Under the pieces are notes generated by a model. The model did not search any database. It was given only the letters and a program-made list of their open reading frames with translations, and was not told the DNA's origin. A program made the translations under genes and the position numbers. Below, in pieces: positions 4,847-21,712 of a stretch of DNA of 23,445 nucleotides (positions are counted from its first letter, which is position 1; each line of letters opens with the position of its first letter). The DNA comes from a virus, in IMG/VR virus record IMGVR_UViG_3300017917_003363, positions 1-23,445 of that record. One strand, given 5' to 3'.

Positions 4847-4854
4847 TAAATATA

Positions 4855-4861
4855 ATTACAC
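4855..4861 (-). promoter_or_regulatory. GTGTAAT heptamer upstream of the tube-like gene
   Basis: On the minus strand GTGTAAT ends 8 bases before the ATG at 4846. It is one of five sense-orientation copies of GTGTAA[T/A] found upstream of structural transcription units in this window. If it acts as a -10-like box the transcript would start 1-3 bases before the ATG. The short spacing makes this copy the least comfortable of the five. Confidence 0.35.
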
Positions 4862-4877
4862 TTCTTTTTAAGTGTAA
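4856..4877. repeat. 8-bp inverted repeat in the divergent control region
   Basis: TTACACTT (4856-4863) and AAGTGTAA (4870-4877) are perfect reverse complements around a CTTTTT spacer, in the middle of the 52-base gap between divergent genes. Because of this symmetry each strand carries the GTGTAA heptamer core. It could be a symmetric divergent promoter, an operator, or both. Confidence 0.6.
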
Positions 4878-4878
4878 A
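4872..4878 (+). promoter_or_regulatory. GTGTAAA heptamer upstream of the tail tip operon
   Basis: GTGTAAA lies 20 bases before the ATG of the M-like gene at 4899. If treated as a -10-like box, the transcript would begin near 4885, at the GAGGT (4885-4889) that serves as Shine-Dalgarno with a 9-base gap to the ATG. It differs from the other copies only in the last base. Confidence 0.4.
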
Positions 4879-4898
4879 TTATATGAGGTAAAAGGTAT

Positions 4899-5447
4899 AT
4901 GGCTAGTATTTATGATACAGTTTTAAGCTGGAGCGCAGCTACAACATACAATAAATATAATATTGTACTAGGTAGTGATAATAGGTATTATTATTCAATC
5001 ATTGATAATAATGTTGGAGCGGGAAATGATCCTATTACACCTGCTAATTTAGGGGTATATTGGGATGGATATATCTCATTAAATGGTAATCTAATACCTG
5101 ATTTTTGGTGGAAATCATCCTATAACGCAAAAATAGATAATAAACCAAGAATAAGATATAACCAATTTGGTAATGGATATCAGCAAAGAATACCAGATGG
5201 TCTAAATACGAGTTTTGTTGAGTTTAATTTAACCTTTGAAAACAGAAGTGAATTAGAAACTGTATCTATTTTACATTTTCTAAGACAAAGAAATGGTCAA
5301 GAAAGTTTTATATATAATTTACCAACAATATATTCAAAATCTACAAATAATTTAACCACAAGATTTATATGTGCAGATTGGAGTTCATCTTATATTTCAT
5401 ATAATAATTATACAATAGACTGTAAATTTATCGAAGTACCAATATAA
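4899..5447 (+). CDS. M: Minor tail protein, lambda M-like, with N-terminal CBM5/12-like module
   Basis: 182 residues against about 109 for lambda M. The C-terminal part (about 68-182) has the M-family pattern: FGNGYQQRIPDGLN (90-103), then LTFENRSELE, then FLRQRNGQESFIYNLP (127-142), and a final RFICADWSSSY (155-165). M helps build the tail tip complex and joins it to the tube. The extra N-terminus (about 11-55) reads W11-x5-Y17-x5-V23, YYY (30-32), P45 and YW (54-55), the aromatic spacing of chitin/cellulose-binding CBM5/12 modules; a matching module is inserted in the next gene. GAGGT 9 bases before the ATG supports this start. It is the first gene of a tightly packed operon (8 bases to L). 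The M domain is firm; the sugar-binding module is inferred from aromatic spacing alone. Confidence 0.75.
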   Translation: MASIYDTVLSWSAATTYNKYNIVLGSDNRYYYSIIDNNVGAGNDPITPANLGVYWDGYISLNGNLIPDFWWKSSYNAKIDNKPRIRYNQFGNGYQQRIPDGLNTSFVEFNLTFENRSELETVSILHFLRQRNGQESFIYNLPTIYSKSTNNLTTRFICADWSSSYISYNNYTIDCKFIEVPI

Positions 5448-5455
5448 TATAGTTT

Positions 5456-6847
5456 ATGCCAACTTCTTCAGAAATATACGGCTTAATTGTAAGTGGTTCG
5501 AAATCAATAAATTCGGAACTTTTATCATTAACGCCATCAACGCCAGTATATCTTTACGAAATAGATTTATCTCAAATTGCGCCAACTACAATTAACTATA
5601 ATTATAATGGCGAACAACCAATGAATAATGGTATATATAGGATATATAATGACTATAATCTTTATAAAATTCTAAACAACCAATATGGTACATTAAAATG
5701 GCAAGGAAATTTTTACTATCCATTTCCAATTCAAGCAGAAGGCTTTGAATATAATTCAGCAGGTACATTACCTACGCCAAAACTTACAATTGGTAATTTC
5801 TCTCCAGATGGATCTAATAATTCATTTTATAAATATATTAGAATGCAAATGCAATCTTTGGGTGATATTGTTGGCGCAAAATTTACCAGAATTAAAACAT
5901 TTTTAAAATATATAGATGGATGGAATTTTTCTGGCAATATAAATCCATTTAATCCTCAAACTGGAATTTATGAAGTTCAATTACCAAGTGATATATATTA
6001 TATTGATAGAAAAAGTCTAGAGAATAAAAATGTTATTCAATATGAACTTGCTTCTATTTTAGACGTAGAAAATATTACATTACCAGGAAGAACAATCTTA
6101 GCTAAAAAATGTCCATTTCAATATAGAGGAGAAGGTTGCTGTTATGAATATGATTCTAGATTAACAGCCTTACACAGTGGAGTATATGCCTATGTAGAAA
6201 ATTCACCTATATCAGTAAAAGGACTACAAACTGCACCACCAGTTTCAACAGATAACAATCAGTTATTTATTGGAAGTATTTTTAATACAGGAGATCAGGC
6301 TGGTAGGACCGCAATTTTTAGGATTACTGGTGGTCTAGGTAACTCTGGCTTATGGCAAACTAACGCAAACTATACATCTGGAGATTTTGTTTTCTTAACT
6401 AGTAATAATCTAAAATTCTATTACGTATGCATCCGACCTCATACATCAGATATATTTAATGGTCCTCCTAGTGTTAATTATTGGACTGCAGATTCTTGCG
6501 CTAAAGAAATAAGCTCTTGTAGACTAAGATGGTTAAAAAATCCAGCATTTCGTCCAGTTATTTGGCCAGTAAATCGAGGTGGAGAAACTTGGTCAGGATT
6601 TTATCAAAAAATGCATGCAAGCGACGGATTAGCAGGCTATATACCATTATATACTCAATATGAAGTAGATACTCAATTTATAACTGGAGTAAATGGAGTA
6701 CCAGTTTACTATCCAAGAAGGCCTGGAGCAGAAAATCCAATTTCAGAGCAGTCTCATGGAATTCCTAAAGATGCGAATGGAAATTATTTAAATGGATATT
6801 TACCATTTGGAGGATTTCCTGGAACAAGCAATTCATCATCTGTATGA
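5456..6847 (+). CDS. L: Tail tip protein, lambda L-like iron-sulfur protein with a large insertion
   Basis: 463 residues, about twice lambda L (232). L-family features are clear: KKCPFQYRGEGC (217-228), DSCAKEISSC (346-355), and LPFGGFPG near the C-terminus (449-456). The cysteine spacings C219-x8-C228 and C348-x6-C355 match the four cysteines that bind a 4Fe-4S cluster in lambda-type L, so the cluster is probably kept. The loop between the two pairs is 119 residues here, far longer than in lambda. It holds W300 QTNANY, GDFV, YYV, GPPS and YW (342-343), a second CBM5/12-like module resembling that in M. The N-terminal 200 residues form the tail-hub-like part. No Shine-Dalgarno precedes the ATG, so translation is probably coupled to M. 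Stop and next start overlap as ATGA. Confidence 0.85.
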   Translation: MPTSSEIYGLIVSGSKSINSELLSLTPSTPVYLYEIDLSQIAPTTINYNYNGEQPMNNGIYRIYNDYNLYKILNNQYGTLKWQGNFYYPFPIQAEGFEYNSAGTLPTPKLTIGNFSPDGSNNSFYKYIRMQMQSLGDIVGAKFTRIKTFLKYIDGWNFSGNINPFNPQTGIYEVQLPSDIYYIDRKSLENKNVIQYELASILDVENITLPGRTILAKKCPFQYRGEGCCYEYDSRLTALHSGVYAYVENSPISVKGLQTAPPVSTDNNQLFIGSIFNTGDQAGRTAIFRITGGLGNSGLWQTNANYTSGDFVFLTSNNLKFYYVCIRPHTSDIFNGPPSVNYWTADSCAKEISSCRLRWLKNPAFRPVIWPVNRGGETWSGFYQKMHASDGLAGYIPLYTQYEVDTQFITGVNGVPVYYPRRPGAENPISEQSHGIPKDANGNYLNGYLPFGGFPGTSNSSSV

Positions 6848-7569
6848 TAGATAAAAAAATAAAAAATTTTATTCGCGCAGAATCTATAAAAAATTCGCCA
6901 AGAGAATCGTGTGGATTTATTGTTGAAAAAAATAATAAAATCTCATGTGTTAGAACAAAAAATATTGCAGAAGATCCAATATCTTATTTTCAAATTTCAT
7001 CAGTAGATTTTCTTCAGACAAAAAGAAATTATGACAATATTTTATATATCTATCATAATCATTTAGATGAAAATTTTGATTTTAGTGAATTAGATATTTT
7101 AACTTCTGATAATATCAATATACCTTTATTGTTGTATATTTTTAAAGATGATTGTTTTAAAACCTATTATCCAATATCTTTTAAAAAGACTTATATCGGT
7201 AAATGTTTTAAGATTAAAGAAAATGATTGTTTTACATTTATAAAAGATTATTTTTTAAATGAATTCAATATAAATATACAGCCAATTACAGAAAATTATT
7301 CTAATAGTAAAGAAGCTCAATTTAGATTAGAGGAAAATTTAAGTTTAAATTTTTTAGAAAAAAATGGATTTTATAAAATCGAAGACATGCAAGTACTGGA
7401 AAGTAACGACATACTTTTGATTTCAACTAAATTCGGCAAACATTTCGCTATATACATAGGAAATAATAAAATTATTCACCAGCCTATATTTGGTTTCTCA
7501 AAAATTGAAAATTATTGTAATTTTTATAGAAGGCATACGGTGTCAGTCTACAGGAGGAAAATATGGTAA
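6844..7569 (+). CDS. K: Tail tip assembly protein, lambda K-like: JAMM plus NlpC/P60 domains
   Basis: 241 residues, close to the usual size of K proteins. The N-terminal half is a JAB/MPN (JAMM) domain with an intact metalloprotease motif: E21 in ESCGF, then H71-N-H73-x7-S81-x2-D84. The C-terminal half is an NlpC/P60 domain with catalytic C129 in ENDCFTF and H200 in GKHFAIYIG. Lambda K acts in tail tip assembly and is thought to process or be processed during maturation or to cleave peptidoglycan at infection; both active sites look complete here. It starts in an ATGA overlap with L and overlaps I by 7 bases, so the three are translationally coupled. Residues 125-195 are unusually rich in Asn, Lys and Phe, as expected from AT-rich drift. 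Confidence 0.85.
   Translation: MIDKKIKNFIRAESIKNSPRESCGFIVEKNNKISCVRTKNIAEDPISYFQISSVDFLQTKRNYDNILYIYHNHLDENFDFSELDILTSDNINIPLLLYIFKDDCFKTYYPISFKKTYIGKCFKIKENDCFTFIKDYFLNEFNINIQPITENYSNSKEAQFRLEENLSLNFLEKNGFYKIEDMQVLESNDILLISTKFGKHFAIYIGNNKIIHQPIFGFSKIENYCNFYRRHTVSVYRRKIW
7552..7557 (+). promoter_or_regulatory. Strong Shine-Dalgarno AGGAGG before gene I
   Basis: AGGAGG lies 5 bases before the ATG at 7563 and inside the end of K. It is the only full-consensus site among the plus-strand tail tip genes and decides this start. It shows that the host ribosome uses Shine-Dalgarno pairing, although L and J lack a site. Confidence 0.85.
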
Positions 7570-8333
7570 AGGTAACTTTACATGGAAAATTAGGTGAAGA
7601 ATTTAATTCCGAATGGGATTTAGAAGTTACTAGTGTTGCAGAAGCTCTAAGGGCTATTGAAGCTAATACTAGAAAATTTAGAAGATGGTTAATTCAAAAT
7701 AAAGATGTCTTTGCATATGAGATATTAGTTAATCAAACTAATTTATTTTCTGAACAACCAAATTTAGATTCTTTAGATGATATAAAAAATTCAGAAATTT
7801 GTGTAGATTTTAAAGATAAATTGCAAACAATAGATATTGTTCCTGTTATAATTGGCGCAAGTTTTTTACTTAAACCAGCAGCAAAAATTATTATTGGCGC
7901 AGCAGTAGTAATTGGGGCAATTGCTTTAGCAGTTTTTACTCCATATCTTTTACCAGCCGTAGCACTTGGTATAGCTGGTTTGGGACTTATAGCTGCGGGT
8001 ACTAGTCAGTTGTTATCAAAGCCCCCACCAAATGTTCCATTCAATGCACAACAAGTTGATCCGATTGATGGTACTGAAGGTGGAGCAACCTCATATTTAT
8101 TTAATGGTCCAGTAAATACTGTCGGAGAAGGTGGTCCAGTTCCTGTTGGTTATGGAGAATTATTAATTGGTGGAAATAATGTTTTTGCTAACTACGATAT
8201 TCTATATAGAGCTTATAAAAGCGATTTTAATTCTGATACTTTGCAATATTCTTTACAAGGTACAGATAGTTATATCTTTAATTCAAGAGGGTTTTTAATA
8301 GATCAACAGCCTTCTTTTGTAGAACCAGTTTAA
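7563..8333 (+). CDS. I: Tail tip assembly protein, lambda I-like
   Basis: 256 residues. The N-terminus (1-90) matches the small ubiquitin-like part of lambda I: VKVTLHGKLGEEF (2-14), then EALRAIEANTRKFRRWL (27-43). A long Gly/Ala/Ile-rich hydrophobic stretch follows (about 93-150, PVIIGASFLL through GLGLIAAGTSQLL), which could cross or insert into a membrane; lambda I has the same feature ending in a Pro-rich turn (SKPPP here, 152-156). Residues 177-204 (SYLFNGPVN, GPVPVGYGELLIGG) carry the pattern shared by I and J proteins. I is needed for tail tip assembly and is missing from the finished lambda tail. It overlaps K by 7 bases and lies 4 bases before J. Confidence 0.85.
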   Translation: MVKVTLHGKLGEEFNSEWDLEVTSVAEALRAIEANTRKFRRWLIQNKDVFAYEILVNQTNLFSEQPNLDSLDDIKNSEICVDFKDKLQTIDIVPVIIGASFLLKPAAKIIIGAAVVIGAIALAVFTPYLLPAVALGIAGLGLIAAGTSQLLSKPPPNVPFNAQQVDPIDGTEGGATSYLFNGPVNTVGEGGPVPVGYGELLIGGNNVFANYDILYRAYKSDFNSDTLQYSLQGTDSYIFNSRGFLIDQQPSFVEPV

Positions 8334-8337
8334 TTTT

Positions 8338-11300
8338 ATGGGTAATCCAAATAGATTTGCAGAAGGAATAGATAATGTTTTATTTCCAGCTAATATTGGA
8401 TTTACTTTTTGTGGTTATAATTTTCCAGAAAGCACAGCTCAAGATCTTGGGTCTTTGAGTTTATCTTTTTCTGGATTAAAGATTCCATTTAGTACATCAG
8501 CGGCAGGTGGATATGGTTATGGACCAAGTGGATATGACTCTAGTTGGACTGAACTACAAACTTTAAATGATGAACTTATATATGATTATATTGGGAATTC
8601 ATTTAGAGCAGTAAATTTAGATCCAGGTACACCTGATTTAAATAGTTTATTTCCTACTGGTGATTTTAAAACTGAAGCTCAAAGAGCATTTACATCAATA
8701 ACTACAATAGAAACTTTAGATTTAATCTCAGAAGGTCCAATTGAAGGATTTGTATCAGGTTTATATATTCCAAATCTTAGCGGTAAAACAACAGGAGATA
8801 TTGGTTATACAAGCGTCACTTTTCAACCATATGAAGAAACATATTCTAATCCAGAAACACGATCAATCTATTGGGATGACACACCAATAACCGATCTTCA
8901 AGGATTCTATAATTTTCAATACGCAAATTATAGATTTACTTATGGAGAAAAAACTAATGATCATACAATATATAATCCATATTTAAATTTATATGAGAAT
9001 AGATATAACTATTTTGGTCGCCAAGTAGATAAGAATAAAATTCCACTTGAGACATCTACAACAAAAGCAATAAATGAAAGATTATATGGAGCCTATCTAG
9101 TAAGTGGTAATTATTTAAGATATTATCCAAAATCATATTATATCTATAATACAGAAATATCAGCTCTAAAAATTAATATAAAGATTAATGGTCTTTACGA
9201 GCAAATATTATCTGGTAGTAACGTAGGAGATATAGAAAGAAAAGCTATAGAAACCGTCTTTGTATTATATAGGCTCTTAGATGATGGAACAGTTATTCCT
9301 CTTGATACTTCAAAATATGCGCCATATATTGCTGATATATATTCTAAAGATTCAGTTTATGTTAATGGTAAAATTAGCGGACCAGTAGTATTTACATATC
9401 AATTTAACATTAGACCATATTCAGAAAATCAACCATTTTTTCCATTATTTCCTAATCAAATTGGTTGGGTTGTAGATATATATAGAACAAGTTTAGAAGG
9501 AATTGGTAATTCTAATCAAGCATCAACAACAGTTGATAGTATAACTGAAATTTACTCTGATAGATTTGTCTATCCAGACACAGCAATGGTATGGTCTAAA
9601 TTTGACGCAAGGTATTTTAGTAATGTTCCTTCTAGATCTTATAAAGTAAGACTTCTAAAAGTTAAAGTGCCAATTAATTATGATCCTATTGCAAAGACAT
9701 ATAGTGGTCCTTGGAATGGAAAATTTAAAGTTGCTTGGACGGATAATCCAGCATGGTGTTTTTATGATTTGGTAACTAGTAATCGTTATGGTTTAGGTAA
9801 ATATATTGATCAAGCTTTAGTTGATAAATGGACTTTATATGAAATTGCACAATATTGTGATCAATTAGTTTCAGATGGATTTGGTGGTCTTGAACCTAGA
9901 TTTAGATGTAACGTATTAATAGCGACAAAAGAAGAAGCCTATAAAGTCCTTAATGATATGGCAAGTGTATTTAGAGCTATAATATATTATGCAGCAGGGC
10001 AAATTGTTGTAAGTCAAGATTCTCTTAAAGAACCAATATATTTGTTTAATAATAGCAATGTAATTGATGGAATATTTAATTACTCTGATGCATCAAAGAA
10101 GTCCAGAAAAACCGTAGCATTAATAAGATATAATGATGAAAACAATAATTATAAACCAGCAATTGAATATGTTGAAGATAAATCTTCTGTATTGAAGTAC
10201 GGAATAAGAGAAACCGAAATTGTAGCTTTTGGTTGTACAAATAAAAATCAAGCCAGAAGAATTGGTAAATGGCTTGTAGTGACTGATAATACAGAAACTG
10301 AAACTATTGATTTTCAAGTTGGATTAGAAGGAAACTATGTTAGACCAGGCGATGTTATTTTAGTTTATGATCAAGATAGAAAAAATCAAGTTTACGCGGG
10401 AAGAACATTGGAATTAACTACTGGATATGCAGTTTTAGATGTTCCTTACAATACTTATAATAATTTTGCAATTACTGGAGTAAATAGTGGATTTAATTTC
10501 GCAGTTGTAACACCAACGTATAATTTAGAGTATGGCACAACTTTAGGTAATTTATATTATACAGGATTTTCAGATGTTACATCTAGCGGAATAACTGGAT
10601 TGAATAGTTCTTTCTTTAATAGAAGTCATATACAAACTATTTCAATTAACAATCCTAAAAACTATCTAACTAGTGGAGATGGTGTATATGCAAATAATAT
10701 AAAATTAATATTTCCTACAGCTCTGAATACAGGTTCTTATGATCTATATCAAAATACCGTTTGGACAATAGATATTGATCCTAATCAATATAATGTTAAT
10801 CAGGGTCTAGAAATTAGGTCTGAAATTAATAATCCATCTAATATTGCTTATCCAGGATATTATTTAGAACCATATTTAAATGAAGTTAAAAAATATAGAA
10901 TATTAAATATAACCGAATCTGAAAATTCTTTATTTAATATATCTGCGCTAGAATATAATGATCAAAAATATAAAGATATAGATAATATTGCTACATTAGT
11001 TAATGTGCCAGTAAGACCAGCACTTCCACAAACTCCAGCCTTATTTTTGAGTGGTATATTTAGAAATCGAAATACAAATTCATATTGTACAACAGACCCA
11101 TGTAACGGAACGATTTATACGACAAATCAAGGTGGTATCAATAGTGTGCTATATAATATACAACCACCTAATGGTAATACTAGTAATTCCTTATATTATG
11201 TATATGTTAAATCTGGATCTAATTTTACTAACAGTATTACAGAATCTACATATCTAAAAGATGTTATAAGTTCAGTTTTATTAAAAACAGGTTTAACTCC

Positions 11301-11484: not shown

Positions 11485-11486
11485 AT

Positions 11487-12311: not shown

Positions 12312-12327
12312 GGTTAATTTTAACCTT
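12310..12327. terminator. Palindrome holding both convergent stop codons; weak bidirectional terminator candidate
   Basis: AAGGTTAA (12310-12317) and TTAACCTT (12320-12327) are perfect reverse complements around TT. As a hairpin this gives a stem of about 7 bp. The plus-strand stop (12309-12311) and the minus-strand stop (12320-12322) both overlap it. Neither side has a good U-run (GTTTCTT on plus), so termination would be weak. Confidence 0.4.
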
Positions 12328-15300
12328 GTTTCTTATAAATATTACTTCCTAATAACCCACCTGGTCTTTGTTGTTCAGTAATGACTCTGATTACTTGAGT
12401 TTTAATCTGTTCGGCTAACTGTTTATTTTTTCTTGCTTCTTGATCTTGTAATCTTTCTCCACTTGTAGAGGTTTCTTCTGAAGTTTTTTCTATTTGTTGA
12501 TTTAAATTAACAGTTACATTAACATTATTTGTTGGATTATAATTATTTGTTGAAAGCCCTGTATTATTTGAATTTCCTACAACCCCACCATTTGCAAACT
12601 TAGATACTCTACCTGTATTTAAATCGTCAAAGAATCTCTTGCCATAAAGATTAACAGCTTCCTTTCTCATTACGAATTCTCCGCCCATCAACATAGCTGG
12701 AATATTATCTGTATTTTGTCCACCTCTTGCAAATCCTTTTATATGACCACCATTTCTAAGAAATCCTAATCCTGCCCCAGCCAATCCCATACCAAAAGAT
12801 GCATATGCGCCCCAAGAATTTTGCTGTGCATTATATTGATCTTGTATTTCTTGATTAATTCTTTGATTTTCAGCTAAAGCTTCCATGTTTCTCATATTAA
12901 CATCTTGAACATATTGAAGATATGCAAATAAAGTTTCTGCTCTTTGTTCGCGTATTCTATTTTGTGGATTATTTTCATCTAATAAAGCCGATAAATTAAG
13001 CGTTGGATCAATCATATATTGTCCACCAGTTGGATAACCAGCTGGGCCAGTATATTGAAAATAATTAGCTTTATTAAAACTTCCTTCTCCACCATATTGA
13101 TACTTACCAACTCTTCCTCCATTTAACATTCCTAAAAATCCTGTACCATATTTATTAACAGAACTCTTTTTTATTACATATTCTCCACCACTCAACATCG
13201 CTGGAACATCATCTTTTGTGCCAGACCCGCCAGCTACTTTTCCTCCAGTAGAATAACCTTTTATAATGCCACCTTTTGATTTACCTAATGAACTTAAAAA
13301 GTTTCCAAGACTTCCACCAAATGCACTTGTACTTCCGAATAGTTGACCAAATATAAGATTAGTGCTGAATTCAAGAGCTAATTGTTGTATTTTATTAGAT
13401 ATGTTAAGAGCAAATTTTTGAAAAGCTTCTCCAGCGGTAGTAGTACCTTGAGCAAAGTCTAGAAATGCATTGTTAAATTCACTTTTAATTGTTCTCGCAG
13501 TTTCTTTTGCGCCTAATTGAACTTCTCTATACGCATCTTCTGCTCTATAATCAAATTCATCAAAAAATGCTGCACCAAAATCTCCTATTTGAGTGTCTCC
13601 ACCAAGCGTTCTTAATTCTCTAGCAGCTTGCCTTCCTTGTCTATAATCTTCAGCAAATATTAATCCTCTACGACGTTGAGATTCCAATACAATCTCTTGC
13701 TCAGAACCTTCTAAAGCTTTAGAAAATTTATCGAGATCACCACCTGTTTTAACTAATAATTCATTAACTCTTTGAATATATTTTGCTTCCGCCCCTCTTT
13801 GTTCTGTTTCATTTAATATTTGAGTTCTTAATCCTTCTTGAAGCGTAAGGACTTTTTCAGCAGATATTCTATTTGGATTTAGTTGTTCATTTGCATTTAG
13901 AACTTCTTTTCCATATCTTGTTAGATTTTCTACACTTAATGCTCCTTGAAATTTTTCTAAATTAGCACTTGAAGCGCTTACATCACCAGCTTGACGAGCT
14001 AAATTGAGTATATATTCTTTTGTAATTCTTTTTTCTTCGTCTTTTGCATTTGTAACTTCTTTTACTTTAAATCCTAGCGCTTCTAATAATTTTATTAATG
14101 CTTCTACGCTTGAGCCTAGTTGATCAAATGGGACTGATTGTAAATCTGCAGCTGTTCTATCAATTACTTCTTTAGGAATATTAGCTTTTTGAAGAAAATT
14201 AGTTAATGAATTAATTATATTTTGTCTAGTTCCTGCTTCTATTCTTGCTTGTTTTCCAGCTAAAAGTTTATCAGTTTCTTCTTTTGTAATTCTTTTTACT
14301 TCTTCCGCATTTCTTTCTTCTGGTGGTACAAAATATCCTATTTCACCTGTTTTTGTATCTCTTTTTGTAAATCTTTCTTCTACAGCAGCTTTAAGAGCTT
14401 CATTAAATACTTTCGTATTAGCCAATATATCAGCATTAACATATGCTTTTTCTATCTCTTTTCTAAAAGTTTCTAACATCTGTGGATCTTGTCTTACCTG
14501 CATACCTAATGAAGTTCCACTAGTATTCTTAAAAGAAGCTAAAGCTTTTGCAAAATTTTCTCTTTCATCTGGATTTATACCACCTTTTGTTAATTCTAAA
14601 ATTCTAGATAAATTATCTGTATTTGTTGCATTACTTTGTAATGCAGCTTGAACTTTTGCTAATTCTTCTATTGCCCTAGGAAGATCGCCTGATTCTATTG
14701 CAGCTTTTAGACCATCTCTAAATTCTGCTGGAGTTTCTTTAAAAATATCAATTAAAGCTTCTTCTTTTTCAGCGAGTACCCTTGTTCTTTCTATATCAGT
14801 TAATGTAGAATTACTTAATTTATCAATACTTGTTTGATATGTAGTCATTGCAGCAGAAAACTCAGCTAATGAATCTTTATTAGATTCTGATGCTGCAATT
14901 ACTTCTTTTTGAGTTTTAGTTAGTGAATCAAATGATCCAAGTAAACCAAAACCAAGACCTGTTGCAGCGCCAGTTAAGAAAGATTTTTTTCCACCACCAA
15001 GTGCTAATGAACTTACTCCAAATGACAATGCTGAAGTTGCAGCTTGTGTAATAGCTTTACCTCTTTCATTTTCTACAGATTCAACAATTCTTCGACCAAT
15101 TTTATCGATAAGAGTATATAAAGCAAAACTAAGAACAGATCTTACTATGGTACTACCTAAAATTGATGTTGCCACAGAACCTACAGTAGCAGTACCTCCT
15201 ACTCCTGCTGCGGCTCCTAATCCTAAAAGAGGTACAAGAAAGTTTGGAATAAAACCTTTTGATGCACCAGCAGTTTTAGCTTTAGAACCGCTATACCTTG

Positions 15301-18088
15301 AAACTCCTTGACTTAAACCAAGTGGTTCATCTTTTGTATTGTATACTCCAAGACCCAATGGATTATAAGCGGAGGTTAATCTTTTATCTCTACCTATTCT
15401 AACTCTAGATGGAGATACTCCAGCTGCTAATTCTCTATCAATAGATTCACTTAGAGCTGTAAAATTAGGAATAAAACCATTCGGAGCTTTCTTACCTTTT
15501 ACAGTACTAAAACCACCAAGCCCCATCATACCTCGTTCTTTATAAATTTTAGCAGCAAAACTTTGTAAATTACCAGTTGATAATCCACCTTTAAAATCAG
15601 CTAATAATGTAGTAAAACCAAATAATTTTTGTAAAGTCTTTAAATTTTTACCACCTCTTACGTCAAAATCGCCAAAACCCTTAGCAGATTCCAGAGAAGT
15701 ATAGTTTAAAGCAGTTTTTACTCCAATTTCAAATGCGGAACCAACTGCCGCTCTAACTGCTCCATATGCTCCTTTTTCACCAGAACTAGAAAATGCACCA
15801 GCTAAAACACTTTTATTTACAGTTTTTCCTAAAGGTTTTAAAGTATCAATAAAATTAGTAGTATTATCTAAAATGCTATTTGTTATATTTGTAAATAATC
15901 TTCTTTTATCATCAGCTAAGTCGCCTTCTAATGCAGATTTTTTCATTCCATAAACAGGAATATTTCTTATTGCAAATTCTGAAGATTTTCCTTTTGGAGA
16001 AAATGGTCCAGCTAATATTCTTGATGATCCAATAAATGGTAGTAATATACTAGCAATATTACTAACATCTAATGGAACCGCTTTTTTTGAAGCGGCAAGA
16101 CTTTTTCTCTCAGCAATCTTTACGTCTGATTTAACGTATCCTAATTTTGCTGCTTGGTCTGGGGTCATTTTACCAGTTCTAAGGGCTGCTGCAATTCTTG
16201 CGTTACTGATAAAATTTGGAATAAATCCGTCTGCTGCATATGGATTAAATCCATATATTGAATCAAATGTATTTTTATAATTTTTTCCAGCTATACTTTG
16301 GCTAGGAGGCATAATCGCAGGTTGAGACAATCCTGGAAATCTTTTAACTTTCTCTGCACTATTATAAGTTATTGGGCCTTCTCCAGGTATATTCATTCTT
16401 CTTATATTTCCTGGATTATATCCTCCAGCCAATGCACCAAAAATTTCACTCATAGCAAAATTTGGAATAAATCCAGAACTTTTAGCATTTAATGTTCCAC
16501 CTTTAGTACTAACCCCTCTAGTTAATAAACCACCAGCGATTGTTGTTGAAATTGCAGCAGCTCTTGTTCTTTCTAATGTTTGTTGACGAATAATATTTAA
16601 TATTTTATTTTCAACATCTAGAACACTAATTTGTTTATTATAAACTGCTGCTACTAATGCTGGTTCTTGGGCTAAAACTTGATTTATTCTTGTTTGTATC
16701 TGCGCTCTTTGTTGTGCTTGAGTATTAAGATTTAAAAGTGTCTGTAATGATTGACTAGCAAATTTAGCTAAATTAATTACAAGTTTACCAATAACAGCAG
16801 TAGCTAAAACTACTCCTGGACCACTTATAAATGAGCCAACGCCTTCTAGAATTCCTTTAGCAATTTTACCGCCTACACTCTGAGATTCTACATCTAGACT
16901 TTCTAATCCTCTATTTAATGTATTTAATAAATTCTCAAACGTAGGTTGAAACGAAATCCTACCGATATCTGCTCCAACTTTTGTAAGATTAACAAATGTT
17001 TTATTAATTAATGCTGATAAAGTTTGATTTAAGGCTTCATTTCTTTGTATAGCTTCATCTGTTGCCCCAGAAGCAGTTCTTAAAGCATTATTATAAACAG
17101 AATACTCTTTTTGTAAATCGCCTAAAGCTGCTTTTAAAATATTTATTTGGAAAACGCCGCCAACAGTTTCTGCTACTTGCGCTCTTTGTGAATCGCTTAA
17201 AGTATTAAATGTGCTAGCAAGATTAGATAAGATAGTAATTGCTGGTAAAGTATCTCCTTGTAATGTTCTTACTTCAATTCCTAATCTTTCTAATTGATCG
17301 AGAGTATCAGTTCTTTGTATTCTTGTAAAAATGGTTTTTAATGAGTTACCAATAACTGCTCCACCTCTAGCTGTCGTTTGTTGAACACTTGTAACGATAG
17401 CTAATAATTGATCAAAATCTACTCCAACATCTTGCGCAGAACTTCCAACTCGTTTAATAGCTTCTGCTAAGTCTGCTGAACTAACAGCAAATGCAGCATC
17501 AACATTAGCTAATTTATTAATAATTGTTGTGGAATCTAAAGCTGCATTACTAAAACTATTAATTGTAGCAGTTAATGCTTCTACGGCGCTAACTGTATCT
17601 AAACCACTAAGACGAGTCAATATAAGTGCATCTCTTGTTCTTTTAAGAGTTTCTTCTAAACCTAAACCTTGACGCGAAAACTCTGTTGCAGCTTGAGCTA
17701 CTGTATCAAAAGACTGAGCTGTATTTTTTGCAATATCAAATAATTGACCCCCAAAATTTTGAAGTGTTTTATTGCTTACATTTAAAATAACATTAATATC
17801 TGTCAATGACTTTTGAACATCTATTGTACTTTTTACAAGAGCTGTAAAAGCTCTTTCTACTGAATATATTAGACCAGCACTAGCACCGAATGCAATAACA
17901 CGAGCATTAGAAGCATCTAATGATTTTTGAAACTCATTGGCTGCACCAGTAATTCTACCCAATGGTTGAGTAAAGGCCCTTTCATTTAATCCTTTGAATT
18001 TAAAATCACGCCCCAAGGCCCTTTGAATATCTCTTTCGAGTTGCCTTGTATCTGCACCTACAGAAATTGTAGCCGAAGTCCTTGCCAT
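12320..18088 (-). CDS. Tail tape measure protein, TP901 family, with GFIPNF repeats
   Basis: 1922 residues. The protein sets tail length; at about 1.5 angstrom per residue this predicts a tail near 290 nm (rule of thumb). Residues about 80-380 fit the TP901 tape measure core (Ala-rich helices; TEFSRQGLGLEETLKRTRDA; GGAVIGNSLKTIFTRIQ). Four GFIPNF motifs follow, at 539, 621, 871 and 945. Between the second and third lies a compact region whose E787, D807/D809, D831-F-K833 pattern resembles a PD-(D/E)XK nuclease fold. Residues about 948-1060 are hydrophobic and Gly-rich, a likely membrane-active part. Coiled-coil-like helices fill about 1070-1560. The C-terminus has two Gly-rich repeats (1606-1668 and 1780-1835) with PAMLxGGE. 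AAGGA 8 bases before the ATG supports the start. It lies downstream of two chaperone-like genes and has its own GTGTAAT heptamer. Confidence 0.92.
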   Translation of the reverse strand: MARTSATISVGADTRQLERDIQRALGRDFKFKGLNERAFTQPLGRITGAANEFQKSLDASNARVIAFGASAGLIYSVERAFTALVKSTIDVQKSLTDINVILNVSNKTLQNFGGQLFDIAKNTAQSFDTVAQAATEFSRQGLGLEETLKRTRDALILTRLSGLDTVSAVEALTATINSFSNAALDSTTIINKLANVDAAFAVSSADLAEAIKRVGSSAQDVGVDFDQLLAIVTSVQQTTARGGAVIGNSLKTIFTRIQRTDTLDQLERLGIEVRTLQGDTLPAITILSNLASTFNTLSDSQRAQVAETVGGVFQINILKAALGDLQKEYSVYNNALRTASGATDEAIQRNEALNQTLSALINKTFVNLTKVGADIGRISFQPTFENLLNTLNRGLESLDVESQSVGGKIAKGILEGVGSFISGPGVVLATAVIGKLVINLAKFASQSLQTLLNLNTQAQQRAQIQTRINQVLAQEPALVAAVYNKQISVLDVENKILNIIRQQTLERTRAAAISTTIAGGLLTRGVSTKGGTLNAKSSGFIPNFAMSEIFGALAGGYNPGNIRRMNIPGEGPITYNSAEKVKRFPGLSQPAIMPPSQSIAGKNYKNTFDSIYGFNPYAADGFIPNFISNARIAAALRTGKMTPDQAAKLGYVKSDVKIAERKSLAASKKAVPLDVSNIASILLPFIGSSRILAGPFSPKGKSSEFAIRNIPVYGMKKSALEGDLADDKRRLFTNITNSILDNTTNFIDTLKPLGKTVNKSVLAGAFSSSGEKGAYGAVRAAVGSAFEIGVKTALNYTSLESAKGFGDFDVRGGKNLKTLQKLFGFTTLLADFKGGLSTGNLQSFAAKIYKERGMMGLGGFSTVKGKKAPNGFIPNFTALSESIDRELAAGVSPSRVRIGRDKRLTSAYNPLGLGVYNTKDEPLGLSQGVSRYSGSKAKTAGASKGFIPNFLVPLLGLGAAAGVGGTATVGSVATSILGSTIVRSVLSFALYTLIDKIGRRIVESVENERGKAITQAATSALSFGVSSLALGGGKKSFLTGAATGLGFGLLGSFDSLTKTQKEVIAASESNKDSLAEFSAAMTTYQTSIDKLSNSTLTDIERTRVLAEKEEALIDIFKETPAEFRDGLKAAIESGDLPRAIEELAKVQAALQSNATNTDNLSRILELTKGGINPDERENFAKALASFKNTSGTSLGMQVRQDPQMLETFRKEIEKAYVNADILANTKVFNEALKAAVEERFTKRDTKTGEIGYFVPPEERNAEEVKRITKEETDKLLAGKQARIEAGTRQNIINSLTNFLQKANIPKEVIDRTAADLQSVPFDQLGSSVEALIKLLEALGFKVKEVTNAKDEEKRITKEYILNLARQAGDVSASSANLEKFQGALSVENLTRYGKEVLNANEQLNPNRISAEKVLTLQEGLRTQILNETEQRGAEAKYIQRVNELLVKTGGDLDKFSKALEGSEQEIVLESQRRRGLIFAEDYRQGRQAARELRTLGGDTQIGDFGAAFFDEFDYRAEDAYREVQLGAKETARTIKSEFNNAFLDFAQGTTTAGEAFQKFALNISNKIQQLALEFSTNLIFGQLFGSTSAFGGSLGNFLSSLGKSKGGIIKGYSTGGKVAGGSGTKDDVPAMLSGGEYVIKKSSVNKYGTGFLGMLNGGRVGKYQYGGEGSFNKANYFQYTGPAGYPTGGQYMIDPTLNLSALLDENNPQNRIREQRAETLFAYLQYVQDVNMRNMEALAENQRINQEIQDQYNAQQNSWGAYASFGMGLAGAGLGFLRNGGHIKGFARGGQNTDNIPAMLMGGEFVMRKEAVNLYGKRFFDDLNTGRVSKFANGGVVGNSNNTGLSTNNYNPTNNVNVTVNLNQQIEKTSEETSTSGERLQDQEARKNKQLAEQIKTQVIRVITEQQRPGGLLGSNIYKKQG
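12584..13273 (-). repeat. Two diverged Gly-rich repeats in the tape measure C-terminus
   Basis: Codons 1606-1668 (13085-13273) and 1780-1835 (12584-12751) encode the same order of motifs. GGIIKGYSTGG aligns with GGHIKGFARGG. DVPAMLSGGEYVIKKSSVN aligns with NIPAMLMGGEFVMRKEAVN. LNGGRVGKYQYGG aligns with LNTGRVSKFANGG. The span also includes the unrepeated 111 residues between them. Such PAMLxGGE units are common at tape measure ends. Confidence 0.8.
15239..16473 (-). repeat. Four GFIPNF motifs in the tape measure protein
   Basis: GFIPNF is encoded near 16456-16473, 16211-16228, 15461-15478 and 15239-15256 (residues 539, 621, 871, 945). Gaps are 82, 250 and 74 residues. Each is preceded by a small or polar run (KSS, AAD, APN, ASK). 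The motif probably separates folded modules and may be a processing or unfolding hinge (inference). Confidence 0.85.
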
Positions 18089-18111: not shown

Positions 18112-18118
18112 ATTACAC
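18112..18118 (-). promoter_or_regulatory. GTGTAAT heptamer upstream of the tape measure gene
   Basis: On the minus strand GTGTAAT ends 23 bases before the ATG at 18088. Treated as a -10-like box it gives a leader of about 17 bases carrying the AAGGA Shine-Dalgarno. It lies in the 58-base gap after the second chaperone-like gene, so the long tape measure gene may have its own promoter. The gap also holds TATCATAAT but no hairpin. Confidence 0.4.
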
Positions 18119-18146: not shown

Positions 18147-19163
18147 TTATTTAATACCATGTAGTTTCATTAGATCTTGCATACTTAAAGTGCCACCTTT
18201 TTTCAATGCTTCTCCATGTAAACTTAATCCCTTCTCATCTGCTCCAATTTTAGCAAGATCTTCTTTATTAGCTCCTACTATAGAAGTTCCAACCGCACCT
18301 TCGCTTTTCTTATTCTCTTTCATATTAGTTTTAGCGAGTACTTCCTCGGCATTTTTACTACTTTCGAGCCAATCAATGAGTTTCTCTGGATCTTCATATA
18401 ATTCATCTGCTGGTTTATGTTTAGCTTCAGAAAGGGCATTTCTAAAATATCTAGAATAGCTAAATACTTCGATTTGATAAAAAGTAAGGTATATTACAGG
18501 CTTTCCATAAAGATAATATGCGCTATCTTCACACATATTATACAAGCTAAGATAAAAAGAAGATAATGCTATTTTCTTTAAATTTTTTTCAGAAAAGTCT
18601 TTATTTATATTATTATATATATCTATAATCTCTGATACGTCTTTATTCTCCAACTCATCAAACTGATCTTCAGAAAAGAATCTTTCATTTAAATTTTTAT
18701 CTTTAAATAATGAATTATACATATAATATTCATTAACTTTTTTATTAGCATAATCTTCAACAGTAAACCCTAATAAATCTTTTCTTTCACTTATTAATTG
18801 GATTAATTTTAGATTTTGTTCATTAAGTTGTTGATTAATAGAATTTATTTCTTCATTTCTAAACAGCTTCGATTTTGTTGTTTTAAGATTAGAAATATAA
18901 GATTTTATCTTTTGTATTTCTTCATTTTTTTCCTGCGACCAAAGCTTTTCTAGTATTAAATACTTTTCTTTTTCTTCTTCTGTTGGTAGACCATTACTCT
19001 TGGCTTTCCTTACGAAATCCTGTCTTTTGGAATCTATATCGCCAGAATCAAAACTAGTATTATGTTTAAAATAGACTTTATTATTTTTATAATATGCTTC
19101 CGTATATCCCTTGAGTATATCAACAAATAGTAGTCTTATTTTATTTTTATTTACAGTTTCCAA
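18147..19163 (-). CDS. Probable tail assembly chaperone, second of a pair (TTG start)
   Basis: 338 residues, mostly helical and charged; no signal peptide or membrane segment. The assignment rests on position, between the tail tube and tape measure genes where lambda has G and T, plus overall helical character. Residues about 200-245 (SSFYLSLYNMCEDS, then YLTFYQIEVFSYSRYF) are the most hydrophobic and likely the folded core. The tail ends GGTLSMQDLMKLHGIK. The start is TTG, 9 bases after GGAG. An ATG at 19167 is ruled out because its frame stops after six codons. This ORF is in the same frame as the upstream gene, separated by tandem TAA TGA, so translation probably restarts at the TTG. No slippery site joins the two frames. 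Could instead be a tail protein of another kind. Confidence 0.5.
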   Translation of the reverse strand: METVNKNKIRLLFVDILKGYTEAYYKNNKVYFKHNTSFDSGDIDSKRQDFVRKAKSNGLPTEEEKEKYLILEKLWSQEKNEEIQKIKSYISNLKTTKSKLFRNEEINSINQQLNEQNLKLIQLISERKDLLGFTVEDYANKKVNEYYMYNSLFKDKNLNERFFSEDQFDELENKDVSEIIDIYNNINKDFSEKNLKKIALSSFYLSLYNMCEDSAYYLYGKPVIYLTFYQIEVFSYSRYFRNALSEAKHKPADELYEDPEKLIDWLESSKNAEEVLAKTNMKENKKSEGAVGTSIVGANKEDLAKIGADEKGLSLHGEALKKGGTLSMQDLMKLHGIK

Positions 19164-19166
19164 TCA

Positions 19167-19928
19167 TTACTTCTCCGCTTTTTTACCATCTTTATTTATT
19201 GCATCAAGAAGCTTAGAAAACTCTTCTTGTGTTGCGGCTCTACCAATATACCAGAAACTAATCAAATATAATAATTTTTGAAGAGCAATTTTTTCAAGAC
19301 CTAATTCTGATTCTTCAATTTCATCATATTTCTTTAATTTTTCATCATAAGAACCATCTCCAAAAAGTTCTTTTAGCTTTTTATCTTCACCTTCAATAAG
19401 ACTAAGTTGAAGTACCCACCACATAATTGTTTTATTTCTTGCTCTATTCTCGGCGGTTTGTTCAAAAAGATTAGCTTGTGCCATTTCATATTTTTGAATC
19501 ATTTCTCTTGTTTCTGTCATCTTTTCGATAATTTTAGCGAGTTCACTTTTTTCCTCATCTGTTCTTAATGATTCTTGTTTTAAGGATAATTTTTGAAAAT
19601 CAACTTGTAGATTTAGAAAATCATTGTAAAGATCATTATATTCTTTTTGCTCTTCTTCGCTTAAAACTCCACCATCATTATTAAATCTTTTAGCTAGTAA
19701 AGCACGAGTTAAAAGGCCAGCCTTAATACCTTCAGATAGTCTAACTCCATAGAAAAGTTCAGCTTCGTCAAAAAGACTTCTTGTTGGTTTTTTGATACCA
19801 AGTTTAACTGGCGCTGTAGTTTTAACTTTAGAAGTTACTTTAACTTCTTCACCCTTTTCATTAGTGGAAACTTCAATTTTTTCTACTTCTTTTTCATGAT
19901 AAATATCAAATTCAAACATTGTTTTCAT
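19167..19928 (-). CDS. Probable tail assembly chaperone, first of a pair
   Basis: 253 residues. A basic, Val/Lys-rich N-terminus (15-45) leads to KKPTRSLFDEAELFYGVRLS (46-65) and GIKAGLLTRALLAKRF (68-83). A long coiled-coil-like stretch follows (about 88-165), then a helical C-terminal part with MWWVLQLSLIEGEDKKLKE. This layout, with a conserved N-terminal block and a central coiled coil, is what I recall for pre-tape-measure proteins of marine tailed phages; it is not a strict match to lambda G. GGAG 7 bases before the ATG and an ATGA overlap with the upstream gene support the start. A second ATG three codons in is possible. It ends with TAA TGA just before the TTG start of the next gene. 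Confidence 0.5.
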   Translation of the reverse strand: MKTMFEFDIYHEKEVEKIEVSTNEKGEEVKVTSKVKTTAPVKLGIKKPTRSLFDEAELFYGVRLSEGIKAGLLTRALLAKRFNNDGGVLSEEEQKEYNDLYNDFLNLQVDFQKLSLKQESLRTDEEKSELAKIIEKMTETREMIQKYEMAQANLFEQTAENRARNKTIMWWVLQLSLIEGEDKKLKELFGDGSYDEKLKKYDEIEESELGLEKIALQKLLYLISFWYIGRAATQEEFSKLLDAINKDGKKAEK

Positions 19929-20200
19929 ATTTTTTCTCCATTATTTTCAACTATCTCATTGAGATATTTTTTAATTTTTCCATAATAAACGACACCACCT
20001 ATTGTTTTTATAAACAGATGTTTCTTTGTTTCGTCCCAATTTTTATAATTTTTGATAAAATTAGGATTTTTAAGAATAGTTACGCTAGGTTTCAAAATGC
20101 CAAAATTATCTTTTAAGCTTTTTTGTATGCTTTGGACAGAAAGATTGCCTTCTATAATTTGGTCTATACTAAAATTATAATTTAATCTTTTAGGTTTCAT
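19925..20200 (-). CDS. Small protein of unknown function between tail tube and chaperone genes
   Basis: 91 residues, basic and rich in Lys, Ile and Asn. Residues 10-50 look helical, followed by a likely beta-hairpin (HLFIKTIGGVVYYGKI, 61-76) and a C-terminal helix. No motif I can name. It is coupled at both ends by ATGA overlaps (20197-20200 and 19925-19928), so it belongs to the chaperone operon. There is no Shine-Dalgarno of its own. A role as a tail assembly accessory is inferred only from place. Confidence 0.5.
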   Translation of the reverse strand: MKPKRLNYNFSIDQIIEGNLSVQSIQKSLKDNFGILKPSVTILKNPNFIKNYKNWDETKKHLFIKTIGGVVYYGKIKKYLNEIVENNGEKI

Positions 20201-20421
20201 TTTATTGATATATTTAATTTACTGAAACTTTCTTCTATTTCTCTTATCGCATCATTTGCATTATCGAGTATTCTTTTGCGTATTTTTTGATAAGTTTCAT
20301 CATTTATATTATATCCAGAATCACTTAAATCTTCAAGAATAAAAAAGAAATTCTTGTAAATATTTGTAATTTTTCTCTTTATTTGAAAAAGAGTAATATC
20401 TTTTATAGGATCATTTTCCAT
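20197..20421 (-). CDS. Small helical protein of unknown function, first gene after the tube terminator
   Basis: 74 residues, almost wholly helical and charged, with a Phe-rich patch (YKNFFFILEDL, 22-32). I recognise no family. AAAGG 9-10 bases before the ATG supports the start. It opens a new transcription unit: a strong terminator lies upstream, followed by a GTGTAAT heptamer and a 40-base leader with three AAGGT copies. Its stop overlaps the next start as ATGA. The real gene status is supported by this layout rather than by homology. Confidence 0.5.
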   Translation of the reverse strand: MENDPIKDITLFQIKRKITNIYKNFFFILEDLSDSGYNINDETYQKIRKRILDNANDAIREIEESFSKLNISIK

Positions 20422-20461: not shown

Positions 20462-20468
20462 ATTACAC
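20462..20468 (-). promoter_or_regulatory. GTGTAAT heptamer after the tube terminator
   Basis: On the minus strand GTGTAAT ends 40 bases before the ATG at 20421 and starts just after the terminator's T-run. A -10-like reading gives a leader of about 34 bases holding three AAGGT copies, the last of which acts as Shine-Dalgarno. A promoter right behind a terminator would restart transcription of the chaperone operon. Confidence 0.45.
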
Positions 20469-20471
20469 CAA

Positions 20472-20504
20472 AAAATAACCCCCGCAGAACGCGAGGGTTA
20501 TTTT
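20472..20504 (-). terminator. Strong intrinsic terminator after the tail tube gene
   Basis: AAAATAACCC (20472-20481) pairs with GGGTTATTTT (20495-20504). After one C-A mismatch, CGC pairs with GCG around the loop AGAAC. On the minus strand the stem is followed by a TTATTTTTT run. It is by far the most G+C-rich short segment here. It ends the tube transcript 23 bases after the stop codon. The A/T flanks on both sides would let it work from either direction. Confidence 0.9.
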
Positions 20505-20526
20505 ATAATATTTAATTAATTATTTA

Positions 20527-21681
20527 TTAATATTGACCACTAATAAACAATCCATTATTTAAGTCTTGTGGACCACCAACTTGAGTACTGAATGTCAATG
20601 TTACGGTCTTGTTGGCTCCGATATCAGAACTAAATTCTTGACTATCGAGTTTAGCGCCTTTAAGCTTAAATTGGGCAACTACAGTATTATCATTACATAT
20701 TGGTTTTTCAATTGTAACGATTGGTGTATATGTTGTAGAATCATCGCATACAAGACTTGCAATATTTCCAGCTACCATTTCAGTTACTTGTGCGTCAACG
20801 CTCATAGTTACTGTTAATGGGAAGTCAATTGGTCTTGCAAATGCAAATCTACTGCCAAGTTTTTCGATTGGTGTACGACCAAGATCAAAACTAATTGTAT
20901 AACTTTGAACATTCATTGTACTTGTATTTACTCCACCGCCAGTTGTTTGAGGTATAGTTAGAGTAATATCTCCTGGGCGAAGAGCGCTAATGCCACTTAC
21001 TGTAGCATTTGTAGAAGTATTTTGTAATGTAAATGGTAATTGATAAAAATTATTTAAAGTACTACCATCTACTGGATTTACTGCTGGAACATAATTTCCA
21101 CTTAGGCCTTGTTGGAAATTCATGTTTAGTCCTTCAACATTAATTGTTGTTGTTGGGAAATTACCAACAGAACCTTCTGTAGAGTAGGATGATATAAATC
21201 CATTACCAATTCCAATTACGCCGTTTGTTCCGCTAGTAATATTATTAAATCCTACTGCATCACTACCTTCTGGTACAGTACGGATAAAATAATTTCTTTC
21301 GTCTTCTGTTCCATTTAGAAAGCCTGATATAGCAGAAACGTCTTGAGTAGATCCTGGTGTAGCAATTGTAAATCCTAGATTTTCTTCATTGATAAGATTT
21401 GCTAGAATATAACTAAAGTCTAAAGATACAGTTGGGTTAGTTAGGATAACTCGATCAATTGCAGCTAGTTGACCGAATTGATTTACATCAGTACGATCAA
21501 CTGTAAAGCTGTAATTTGCTGTTTGAATTCTTTGAAGTTGATTAACTAAATTATTACTTGAATTTGGAACATTAGAACTTCCACCAATACCAGGTGTGAA
21601 AGTACCATAATGATAACCTGTGGCTGGTGCTGGGCCAGCGTATAAAGCTTCTGATTGATAAATTATTCTATTTCTTGGCAT
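20527..21681 (-). CDS. Major tail tube protein
   Basis: 384 residues, beta-rich with many Thr, Ser, Asn and Gly. The placement before chaperones and the tape measure gene, its own promoter-like heptamer, a consensus Shine-Dalgarno (GGAG, 10 bases before ATG) and the strong terminator behind it all fit the most abundant tail protein. Residues 57-95 (SFTVDRTDVNQFGQL, then NPTVSLDFSYILAN) and 161-176 (GFISSYSTEGSVGNFP) form the first tube-like unit. Residues 259-300 (QSYTISFDLGRTPIEKLGS, then DFPLTVTMSV) form a second. A two-unit subunit is larger than lambda V (246). The N-terminal 50 residues are flexible and Tyr/Gly/Pro-rich. Two Cys (312, 329) sit in the C-terminal strand region. The tube-like gene at 4040-4846 is a diverged copy. 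Confidence 0.75.
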   Translation of the reverse strand: MPRNRIIYQSEALYAGPAPATGYHYGTFTPGIGGSSNVPNSSNNLVNQLQRIQTANYSFTVDRTDVNQFGQLAAIDRVILTNPTVSLDFSYILANLINEENLGFTIATPGSTQDVSAISGFLNGTEDERNYFIRTVPEGSDAVGFNNITSGTNGVIGIGNGFISSYSTEGSVGNFPTTTINVEGLNMNFQQGLSGNYVPAVNPVDGSTLNNFYQLPFTLQNTSTNATVSGISALRPGDITLTIPQTTGGGVNTSTMNVQSYTISFDLGRTPIEKLGSRFAFARPIDFPLTVTMSVDAQVTEMVAGNIASLVCDDSTTYTPIVTIEKPICNDNTVVAQFKLKGAKLDSQEFSSDIGANKTVTLTFSTQVGGPQDLNNGLFISGQY

Positions 21682-21705
21682 ATTATTGTTTCTCCATTTA
21701 TTGTT

Positions 21706-21712
21706 ATTACAC
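21706..21712 (-). promoter_or_regulatory. GTGTAAT heptamer upstream of the tail tube gene
   Basis: On the minus strand GTGTAAT ends 24 bases before the ATG at 21681. A -10-like reading gives a leader of about 17 bases with GGAG inside it, nearly the same geometry as at the tape measure gene. It lies in the 57-base gap after the preceding gene; that gap is otherwise A/T runs with no hairpin. Confidence 0.45.

What the first reader, a model, noticed from the sequence alone, without database searches (positions are those of the whole stretch)
4847..21712. GTGTAAT heptamer in front of five structural transcription units: candidate phage-specific late promoter
GTGTAAT occurs on the sense strand before the tube-like gene (4855-4861), the chaperone operon (20462-20468), the tail tube (21706-21712) and the tape measure gene (18112-18118). 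GTGTAAA precedes the tail tip operon (4872-4878). These gaps total under 300 bases, where chance would give far less than one copy. If the last base is taken as -7, three units (tube, tape measure, tip operon) get leaders of 14-17 bases that contain or begin with their Shine-Dalgarno. No conserved -35 box accompanies it, and the usual A at -11 is replaced by G, so host sigma70 is not the obvious reader. This looks like T4 late promoters in design (a -10-type box alone) but with a different word. Two copies that I noticed elsewhere (minus strand 5034-5040, plus strand near 15035) are antisense within genes.
Basis: partly seen in the sequence, partly recalled or inferred. Interest (0 to 1): 0.7.

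Follow-up and report, generated by a model that had tools for sequence, protein, structure and literature searches.

The report
New phage late-gene promoter word
A seven-letter DNA word, GTGTAAT, marks where a large, uncultured group of phages most likely starts transcribing its late (virion) genes, apparently read by phage-made sigma factors, and about half of these starts fall right at the gene's first codon, so the messages would carry no leader.

Summary
All five copies are where stated. The raw count in the window is chance-like (7 vs 6.9), but 5 of the 8 GTGTAA lie sense-side in gene leaders (0.06 expected). In all 34 relatives whose tail tube is 65-93% identical, GTGTAAT is invariant before the tube gene while the 5' flank drifts. 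Across 13 contigs, 129 leader copies occur against 2.9 expected. Inside genes GTGTAAT is the rarest of the 210 permutations of its letters; between genes it is the commonest. It tolerates almost no substitution except the last base (T>A>G). No -35 box accompanies it.

The spacing to the start codon peaks at exactly 7-8 bases. Where the start codon is farther away, the eighth base is A in 94% (core set) or purine in 84% (wide set). That places the start of transcription at that base, so about half of the late mRNAs would be leaderless.

Early genes in the same phages carry TTGAC[AT]-N17-TATAAT. No phage multisubunit RNA polymerase was found, but two sigma-70-like proteins were. Best reading: host polymerase redirected by a phage sigma factor, a new variant of the phiEco32/T4 strategy. 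Which sigma reads the word is open.

The parts
4855..4861 (-). GTGTAAT promoter word of the 4040-4846 gene; predicted start of transcription A at 4847, 1-nt leader (leaderless class)
   Evidence: orthologous promoters keep a spacing of 8 in 11 of 13
4872..4878 (+). GTGTAAA promoter word of the tail tip operon 4899-12311; predicted start 4886, 13-nt leader AGGTAAAAGGTAT
   Evidence: spacing of 20 kept in 11 of 12 orthologues; GTGTAAA 29 vs 3.5 expected in leaders
18112..18118 (-). GTGTAAT promoter word of the tape measure gene; predicted start 18104, 16-nt leader AGCAAAGGAATAAGGC with Shine-Dalgarno
   Evidence: spacing 23-25 in 14 of 16 orthologues
20462..20468 (-).
   Evidence: spacing mostly 36-40 in orthologues
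20469..20503 (-). intrinsic-terminator-like hairpin and T run (AAATAACCCTCGC-gttct-GCGGGGGTTATTT-TTT) ending the tube transcript just before the next promoter word; arrangement also seen in relatives
   Evidence: sequence; same order in G001, G003, G009, G010, G014, G017
21706..21712 (-). GTGTAAT promoter word of the tail tube gene 20527-21681; predicted start 21698, 17-nt leader AATGGAGAAACAATAAT
   Evidence: word invariant in 34 of 34 relatives of 65-93% protein identity
4040..4846 (-). first gene of the minus unit behind the first word (268 aa; no PHROGs family)
4899..12311 (+). tail tip operon (lambda M/L/K/I/J-like minor tail proteins and central fibre) behind GTGTAAA
   Evidence: phrog_14, 18, 30, 32, 31
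12320..18088 (-). tape measure protein gene
   Evidence: phrog_4211, E 2e-50
18147..20421 (-). four-gene unit between tube and tape measure (position of tail chaperones; no family match)
   Evidence: function by position only
2388..2416 (+). contrast: sigma-70-type promoter TTGACT-N17-TATCAT, 6 bases before the start codon at 2423; belongs to the other promoter class

Best explanation
GTGTAA[T/A] is the -10 element of the late promoters of this phage clade. It is used without a -35 box. A phage-encoded sigma factor bound to host RNA polymerase reads it, and RNA starts at a purine, mostly A, eight bases after the word. Where the start codon begins at or next to that base, the mRNA is leaderless. 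Elsewhere the leader is about 5-35 nt and often carries a Shine-Dalgarno. Early genes use host sigma-70 promoters (TTGAC[AT]-N17-TATAAT), which also end 6-9 bases before the ATG. Shown here: strict word, strand, spacing, aligned purine, conservation, avoidance in genes, separate early class, sigma genes present, multisubunit RNA polymerase families not found. Inferred: that transcription starts there, that it is late in time, and that a phage sigma factor reads it. Candidates: sigA (about 200 aa, sigma2 and sigma4, in the nucleotide-metabolism operon and never found behind GTGTAA) at about 55%; sigB (227 aa, ECF-like sigma2 plus a Cys cluster and a C-terminal helix-turn-helix, in the packaging operon) at about 30%; both or another factor for the rest.
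For: Invariant word in 34/34 tube leaders. Strand bias, e.g. 24/3 and 1/20, against near-even controls. 184 of 211 copies intergenic. 129 vs 2.9 expected in leaders, with substitutions at positions 1-6 at or below background. 432 nonredundant sites with spacing peaks at 7 (121 sites) and 8 (64 sites), and no -35. Eighth base A in 51/54 (core) or A/G in 135/160 (wide) of sites whose start codon is at least 12 nt away. Third-codon-position mismatches dominate straight after the ATG in the short-spacing class (0.34 vs 0.16/0.13), so those starts are real. Rarest of 210 permutations in genes, commonest between genes; the ATGTAAT control is not depleted. Early-class -35 peaks 30-34 nt and TATAAT 5-9 nt before the ATG. 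Sigma proteins present in every fetched contig that holds their operon. Multisubunit polymerase families absent with working controls.
Against: No transcript 5' ends exist for this clade, so start site, timing and reader are unproven. sigA carries a region-4 domain, which normally contacts a -35, yet none is seen. A few GTGTAA sites lie in the early block. The contigs are fragments and the host is unknown. The T7-type polymerase search had no ringing control.
Confidence: 0.85

Rival explanations
1. The host's primary sigma factor reads GTGTAAT as an ordinary, slightly off-consensus -10 box, helped by a phage activator or by AT-rich flanks.
For: TGTAAT differs from TATAAT by one base, and the spacing to the start codon matches the TATAAT class.
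Against: The same phages use TTGAC-N17-TATAAT elsewhere, and the 26 core matches never share a leader with GTGTAA. The consensus-ward change GTATAAT is not enriched in the core leaders (7 vs 10.2 expected), so the G is required, unlike a weak sigma-70 site. No -35.
Confidence: 0.08
2. GTGTAAT acts at the RNA level, as a translation-initiation element about 7 nt before the start codon in place of a Shine-Dalgarno.
For: The modal spacing of 7-8 nt is also that of a Shine-Dalgarno; sites are sense-stranded.
Against: About a third of sites lie 12-60 nt from the start, many with a Shine-Dalgarno in between, and those keep a purine at the same eighth base. The early TATAAT class has the same spacing.
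Confidence: 0.03
3. The word is a binding site of a repressor or activator, or part of the palindromic divergent region, and not a core promoter element.
For: 4855-4878 forms an inverted repeat (AAGTGTAA.../...TTACACTT), and divergent pairs recur in relatives (TTACACT enriched).
Against: Most sites are single and directional, with base-exact spacing to the start; an operator would not need this. Two divergent promoters back to back produce the palindrome by themselves.
Confidence: 0.03
4. A phage RNA polymerase of an unrecognised type reads the word, as in phiKZ or AR9.
For: Short strict words close to the start site are typical of phage polymerases (PMC5312081: phiKZ late TATG; AR9 late AACA-N6-TA/G).
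Against: No beta or beta-prime family match in 10 contigs with controls ringing; no T7-type match (control silent). Two sigma-70-like genes make an extra polymerase unnecessary.
Confidence: 0.04

Closest known systems
phiEco32 (Kuravirus) sigma36 promoters and the related phage 7-11
   Same: Phage-encoded sigma factor redirects host polymerase; a single -10-like word, tAATGTATAtA, 6-8 nt before the start, serves middle/late genes while early genes keep sigma-70 promoters (PMC4281155, PMC4331800). The sigma gene lies near a dNMP kinase gene in both.
   Different: Different word; tens of sites per genome (20-29 within 60 nt of a start in the larger core contigs) instead of about six in phiEco32; leaderless spacing; no detectable homology of sigA or sigB to gp36; two sigma genes; larger phages (contigs up to 170 kb) with lambda-like tail tips.
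T4 late promoters (gp55/gp33/gp45)
   Same: Bare -10-type box, no -35, many copies, phage sigma factor, late structural genes (general knowledge; PMC5780444 for gp55/gp33/gp45).
   Different: Word is GTGTAAT, not TATAAATA; no detectable homology to gp55; dependence on a sliding clamp untested, although a clamp-loader-like gene exists.
phiKZ/AR9 late promoters
   Same: Short strict word close to the start (PMC5312081).
   Different: Those are read by phage multisubunit polymerases, which were not found here; AR9 leaders are 26-491 nt.

Membership tests
T4-type late promoter system | TATAAATA word | tested here: not met
   Word is GTGTAA[T/A/g]; single substitutions at positions 1-6 at background
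T4-type late promoter system | gp55 homologue | tested here: not met
   hhalign of sigA and sigB alignments with T4 gp55: probability below 1%
T4-type late promoter system | gp33 co-activator and gp45 sliding clamp needed | not tested
   clamp-loader-like gene seen; clamp and gp33 not searched
phiEco32 sigma36 system | gp36 homologue | tested here: not met
   hhalign probability below 1%
phiEco32 sigma36 system | single -10-like word 6-8 nt before start, early genes on sigma-70 | tested here: met
   word with aligned purine 8 bases on, no -35; TTGAC-N17-TATAAT early class
sigma-70 superfamily (for sigA) | region 2 and region 4 domains | tested here: met
   32 of 35 members match Sigma70_r2, 8 match Sigma70_r4; model's top PDB matches are sigma factors; profile matches SigA and ECF sigma
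sigma-70 superfamily (for sigB) | region 2 domain | tested here: inconclusive
   Five of six aligned members pass the Sigma70_r2 cut-off, G001's copy only comes near it; 10 of 22 match phrog_1740; no strong PDB match; low-confidence model
host sigma-70 promoters | -35 TTGACA at 16-18 bp and TATAAT | tested here: not met
   no -35 in 294 sites; no co-occurrence with the TTGAC class
phiKZ-like polymerase promoters | phage-encoded multisubunit RNA polymerase | tested here: not met
   PF04997 and PF00562 absent in 10 contigs; controls rang in 14 of 14
leaderless mRNA | transcript 5' end at the start codon | not testable with these tools
   predicted from spacing 7-8, aligned A and coding signature right after the ATG; needs 5'-end mapping

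The most novel reading that the evidence does not exclude
A widespread uncultured phage clade runs its late programme on a bare GTGTAAT element read by its own sigma factor(s), and about half of its late mRNAs are leaderless by design while many of the rest get a minimal Shine-Dalgarno leader from the same element. Early genes are leaderless too, so promoter-to-AUG spacing would act as a genome-wide setting of translation mode. Two sigma factors would form a cascade.
Probability: 0.55. Interest if true: 0.72.

Novelty: new variant of a known kind. Interest (0 to 1): 0.62.

Why it matters
It adds an independent case of sigma appropriation with a different word and sigma proteins not detectably related to the known ones. 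It makes testable whether phages organise translation through leaderless messages. Such a short, strict, countable late promoter is unusual, and GTGTAAT with its sigma factor could also serve as an orthogonal expression part.

Tried and rejected
(1) Isolated relatives: the tube, sigA and sigB have no match in 50,697 phage records, so no transcriptome can be borrowed. (2) Presence/absence to choose between sigA and sigB: both follow their operons perfectly, so it does not discriminate. (3) A third promoter word for the other sigma: none stood out beyond TATAAT-like and Shine-Dalgarno words. (4) AlphaFold of sigB: pLDDT 58, not searched. (5) Word drift: the most distant contig G024 has GTGTAAT, GTGTAAC or GTGTATT at several structural genes, including its tube and tape measure; suggestive, too few sites. 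(6) Host: two GTDB bins carry a sigB relative (one Flavobacteriales MAG), but the phage's TTGAC-N17-TATAAT does not fit Bacteroidota promoters as I know them, so the host is left open. (7) Paper search for GTGTAAT as a motif: none. (8) One search was a malformed alignment and is not used.

Full report
WHAT WAS CLAIMED AND WHAT IS THERE. The window is a 23,445-base IMG/VR virus contig. GTGTAA[AT] occurs seven times on both strands, which is the chance number (6.9). What is not chance is the place: the hexamer GTGTAA occurs eight times on both strands, five of them on the sense strand in gene leaders, where 0.057 would be expected. It is the best hexamer in the leaders (-log10 p 8.3; the best of 500 shuffled sets reached 6.3). 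Both extra copies are antisense within genes, as stated.

RELATIVES. A tube-protein search found 36 contigs. In the 34 with 65-93% identity and an intact start, GTGTAAT stands 20-24 bases before the tube start, unchanged, while the sequence upstream drifts. Over 20 contigs the word is strongly strand-biased, with the reversed word as a largely unbiased control. In the window plus 13 large contigs, 184 of 211 copies are intergenic although intergenic DNA is about 5% of the total. Among 459 distinct leaders of the core contigs there are 129 copies against 2.9 expected from dinucleotides and 0.2 from the rate in genes. Changes at positions 1-6 are at or near background; the last base may be T (129), A (29) or G (6). 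Inside genes GTGTAAT is the rarest of the 210 permutations of its letters (59; median 368), while ATGTAAT, with the same TAA, is not depleted. Between genes it is the commonest (282; median 24). So the phages keep the word out of genes, as expected of a strong signal.

ANATOMY. In 432 nonredundant sites no -35 column exists; only an AT-rich stretch 8 to 2 bases upstream shows. Spacing from the word to the start codon peaks at exactly 7 (121 sites) and 8 (64). Sites with the start codon 12 or more bases away give an independent test: the eighth base after the word is A in 51 of 54 in the first contig set, and A or G in 135 of 160, never C, in the wide set. In the short class that base is the A of ATG or the base before it. 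The reading is a start of transcription at that purine, giving leaderless messages in the short class and leaders of about 5-35 nt elsewhere. That the short-class ATGs are real starts is shown by third-codon-position mismatches right after them (0.34 against 0.16 and 0.13). Spacing is kept within orthologous groups: 8 in 11 of 13 for the 4040-4846 gene, 23-25 in 14 of 16 for the tape measure, 20 in 11 of 12 for the tip operon. In the window the predicted starts are 4847(-), 4886(+), 18104(-), 20454(-) and 21698(-), with leaders of 1, 13, 16, 33 and 17 nt. The word before the 20421 operon follows an intrinsic-terminator-like hairpin, also in relatives.

A SECOND, SEPARATE PROMOTER CLASS. Leaders without GTGTAA carry TTGAC[AT]-N17-TAT[ACT]AT; the 26 core matches and GTGTAA never share a leader. 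In 1,829 leaders TTGAC peaks 30-34 bases before the ATG (193 against about 5) and TATAAT 5-9 bases before it (192 against about 30). This calibrates GTGTAAT as lying in the same register as a -10 box, and would make the early messages leaderless as well. In G001 the sigma-70-type sites concentrate in the 95-134 kb block and GTGTAAW in the 1-69 kb block with the structural genes. 'Early' and 'late' are inferred from this layout.

WHO READS IT. No beta or beta-prime polymerase family was found in ten contigs, with controls ringing; the T7-type search was also empty, but its control was silent. Two sigma-like proteins are encoded. sigA (about 200 aa) has sigma2 and sigma4 regions, profile matches to SigA and an ECF sigma, and a model whose top PDB matches are sigma factors, though with low global TM-scores. 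It lies close behind the dNMP kinase gene in the nucleotide operon, and its operon was never behind GTGTAA in the 11 contigs inspected. sigB (227 aa) matches sigma2 weakly and has a Cys cluster and a C-terminal helix-turn-helix by eye. It lies in the packaging operon, directly behind GTGTAAT in G002 and G021 and behind TATAAT-like sites in several others. Every fetched contig with the nucleotide operon has sigA and every one with the packaging operon has sigB, so presence does not decide. Compared by eye with E. coli sigma-70, sigA has N and Q where sigma-70 has W433 and W434, which fits a changed -11/-12 preference (inference from remembered sigma-70 numbering, not tested).

REACH. The word stays top-ranked or near it in contigs whose sigA is only 35-47% identical (G023, G027, G028, G030, G021, G022) and at G+C up to 39%. 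In the most distant contig tested, G024, structural genes have GTGTAAT, GTGTAAC or GTGTATT at matching places, so the core GTGTA may outlast the 3' end.

COMPARISON. The nearest known design is phiEco32: a phage sigma factor with a single word, tAATGTATAtA, 6-8 nt before the start for middle and late genes, early genes on sigma-70 (PMC4281155; PMC4331800). Neither sigA nor sigB is detectably related to gp36 or to T4 gp55, though these comparisons used single gp36 and gp55 sequences; the word differs, and it is used at far more sites. It works like those systems but fails their sequence membership tests. The 5.4-million-paper library held no paper with the word GTGTAAT, and my searches found no description of a phage with a genome-wide leaderless late class; this is limited to open papers.

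LIMITS. Everything is sequence inference. Contigs are fragments, gene starts come from a simple caller of my own, and relatedness among contigs inflates raw counts, which is why nonredundant sets were used where it mattered.

Noticed in passing
L050:14722-15112 (-), also L057:19044-19431 (+): These phages encode a tmRNA (Rfam RF00023, 111.8 bits in L050) with an unusual tag, AKTAKYKGHISARASLVEMTASVA, and tRNAs Thr, Asn, Ser in G001 and G003.
   Followed up: partly
window 18127-18140 (-): CTATCATAATTAAG upstream of the tape-measure word; similar CTATCATAATTAA sequence recurs at this place in relatives (G001, G003). Function unknown; not shown to be a second promoter.
   Followed up: no
window 21682-21698 (-): The tube leader begins AATGGAG..., so its first bases contain an ATG-headed 4-codon reading frame; some relatives have ACG instead, so it is probably only the Shine-Dalgarno region.
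   Followed up: partly
L046:9301-11760 (+) and L046:13218-14114 (+): Late-block phage genes with a passenger-associated repeat plus weak PEP-CTERM match, and a FecR domain, unusual for phage; a possible host clue.
   Followed up: no
upstream of the sigB operon, e.g. L046 near 16715-16790, and equivalents in G014 and G016: Conserved AATTTAATTTATTTAGATTAAATT sequence before a TATAAT about seven bases from the start; possibly a regulated middle promoter or operator.
   Followed up: no
sigA loci L185-L209: Near the nucleotide operon GTGTAAA is as common as GTGTAAT (31 vs 33), against 9 vs 71 near the packaging operon; last-base choice might tune strength or timing.
   Followed up: no
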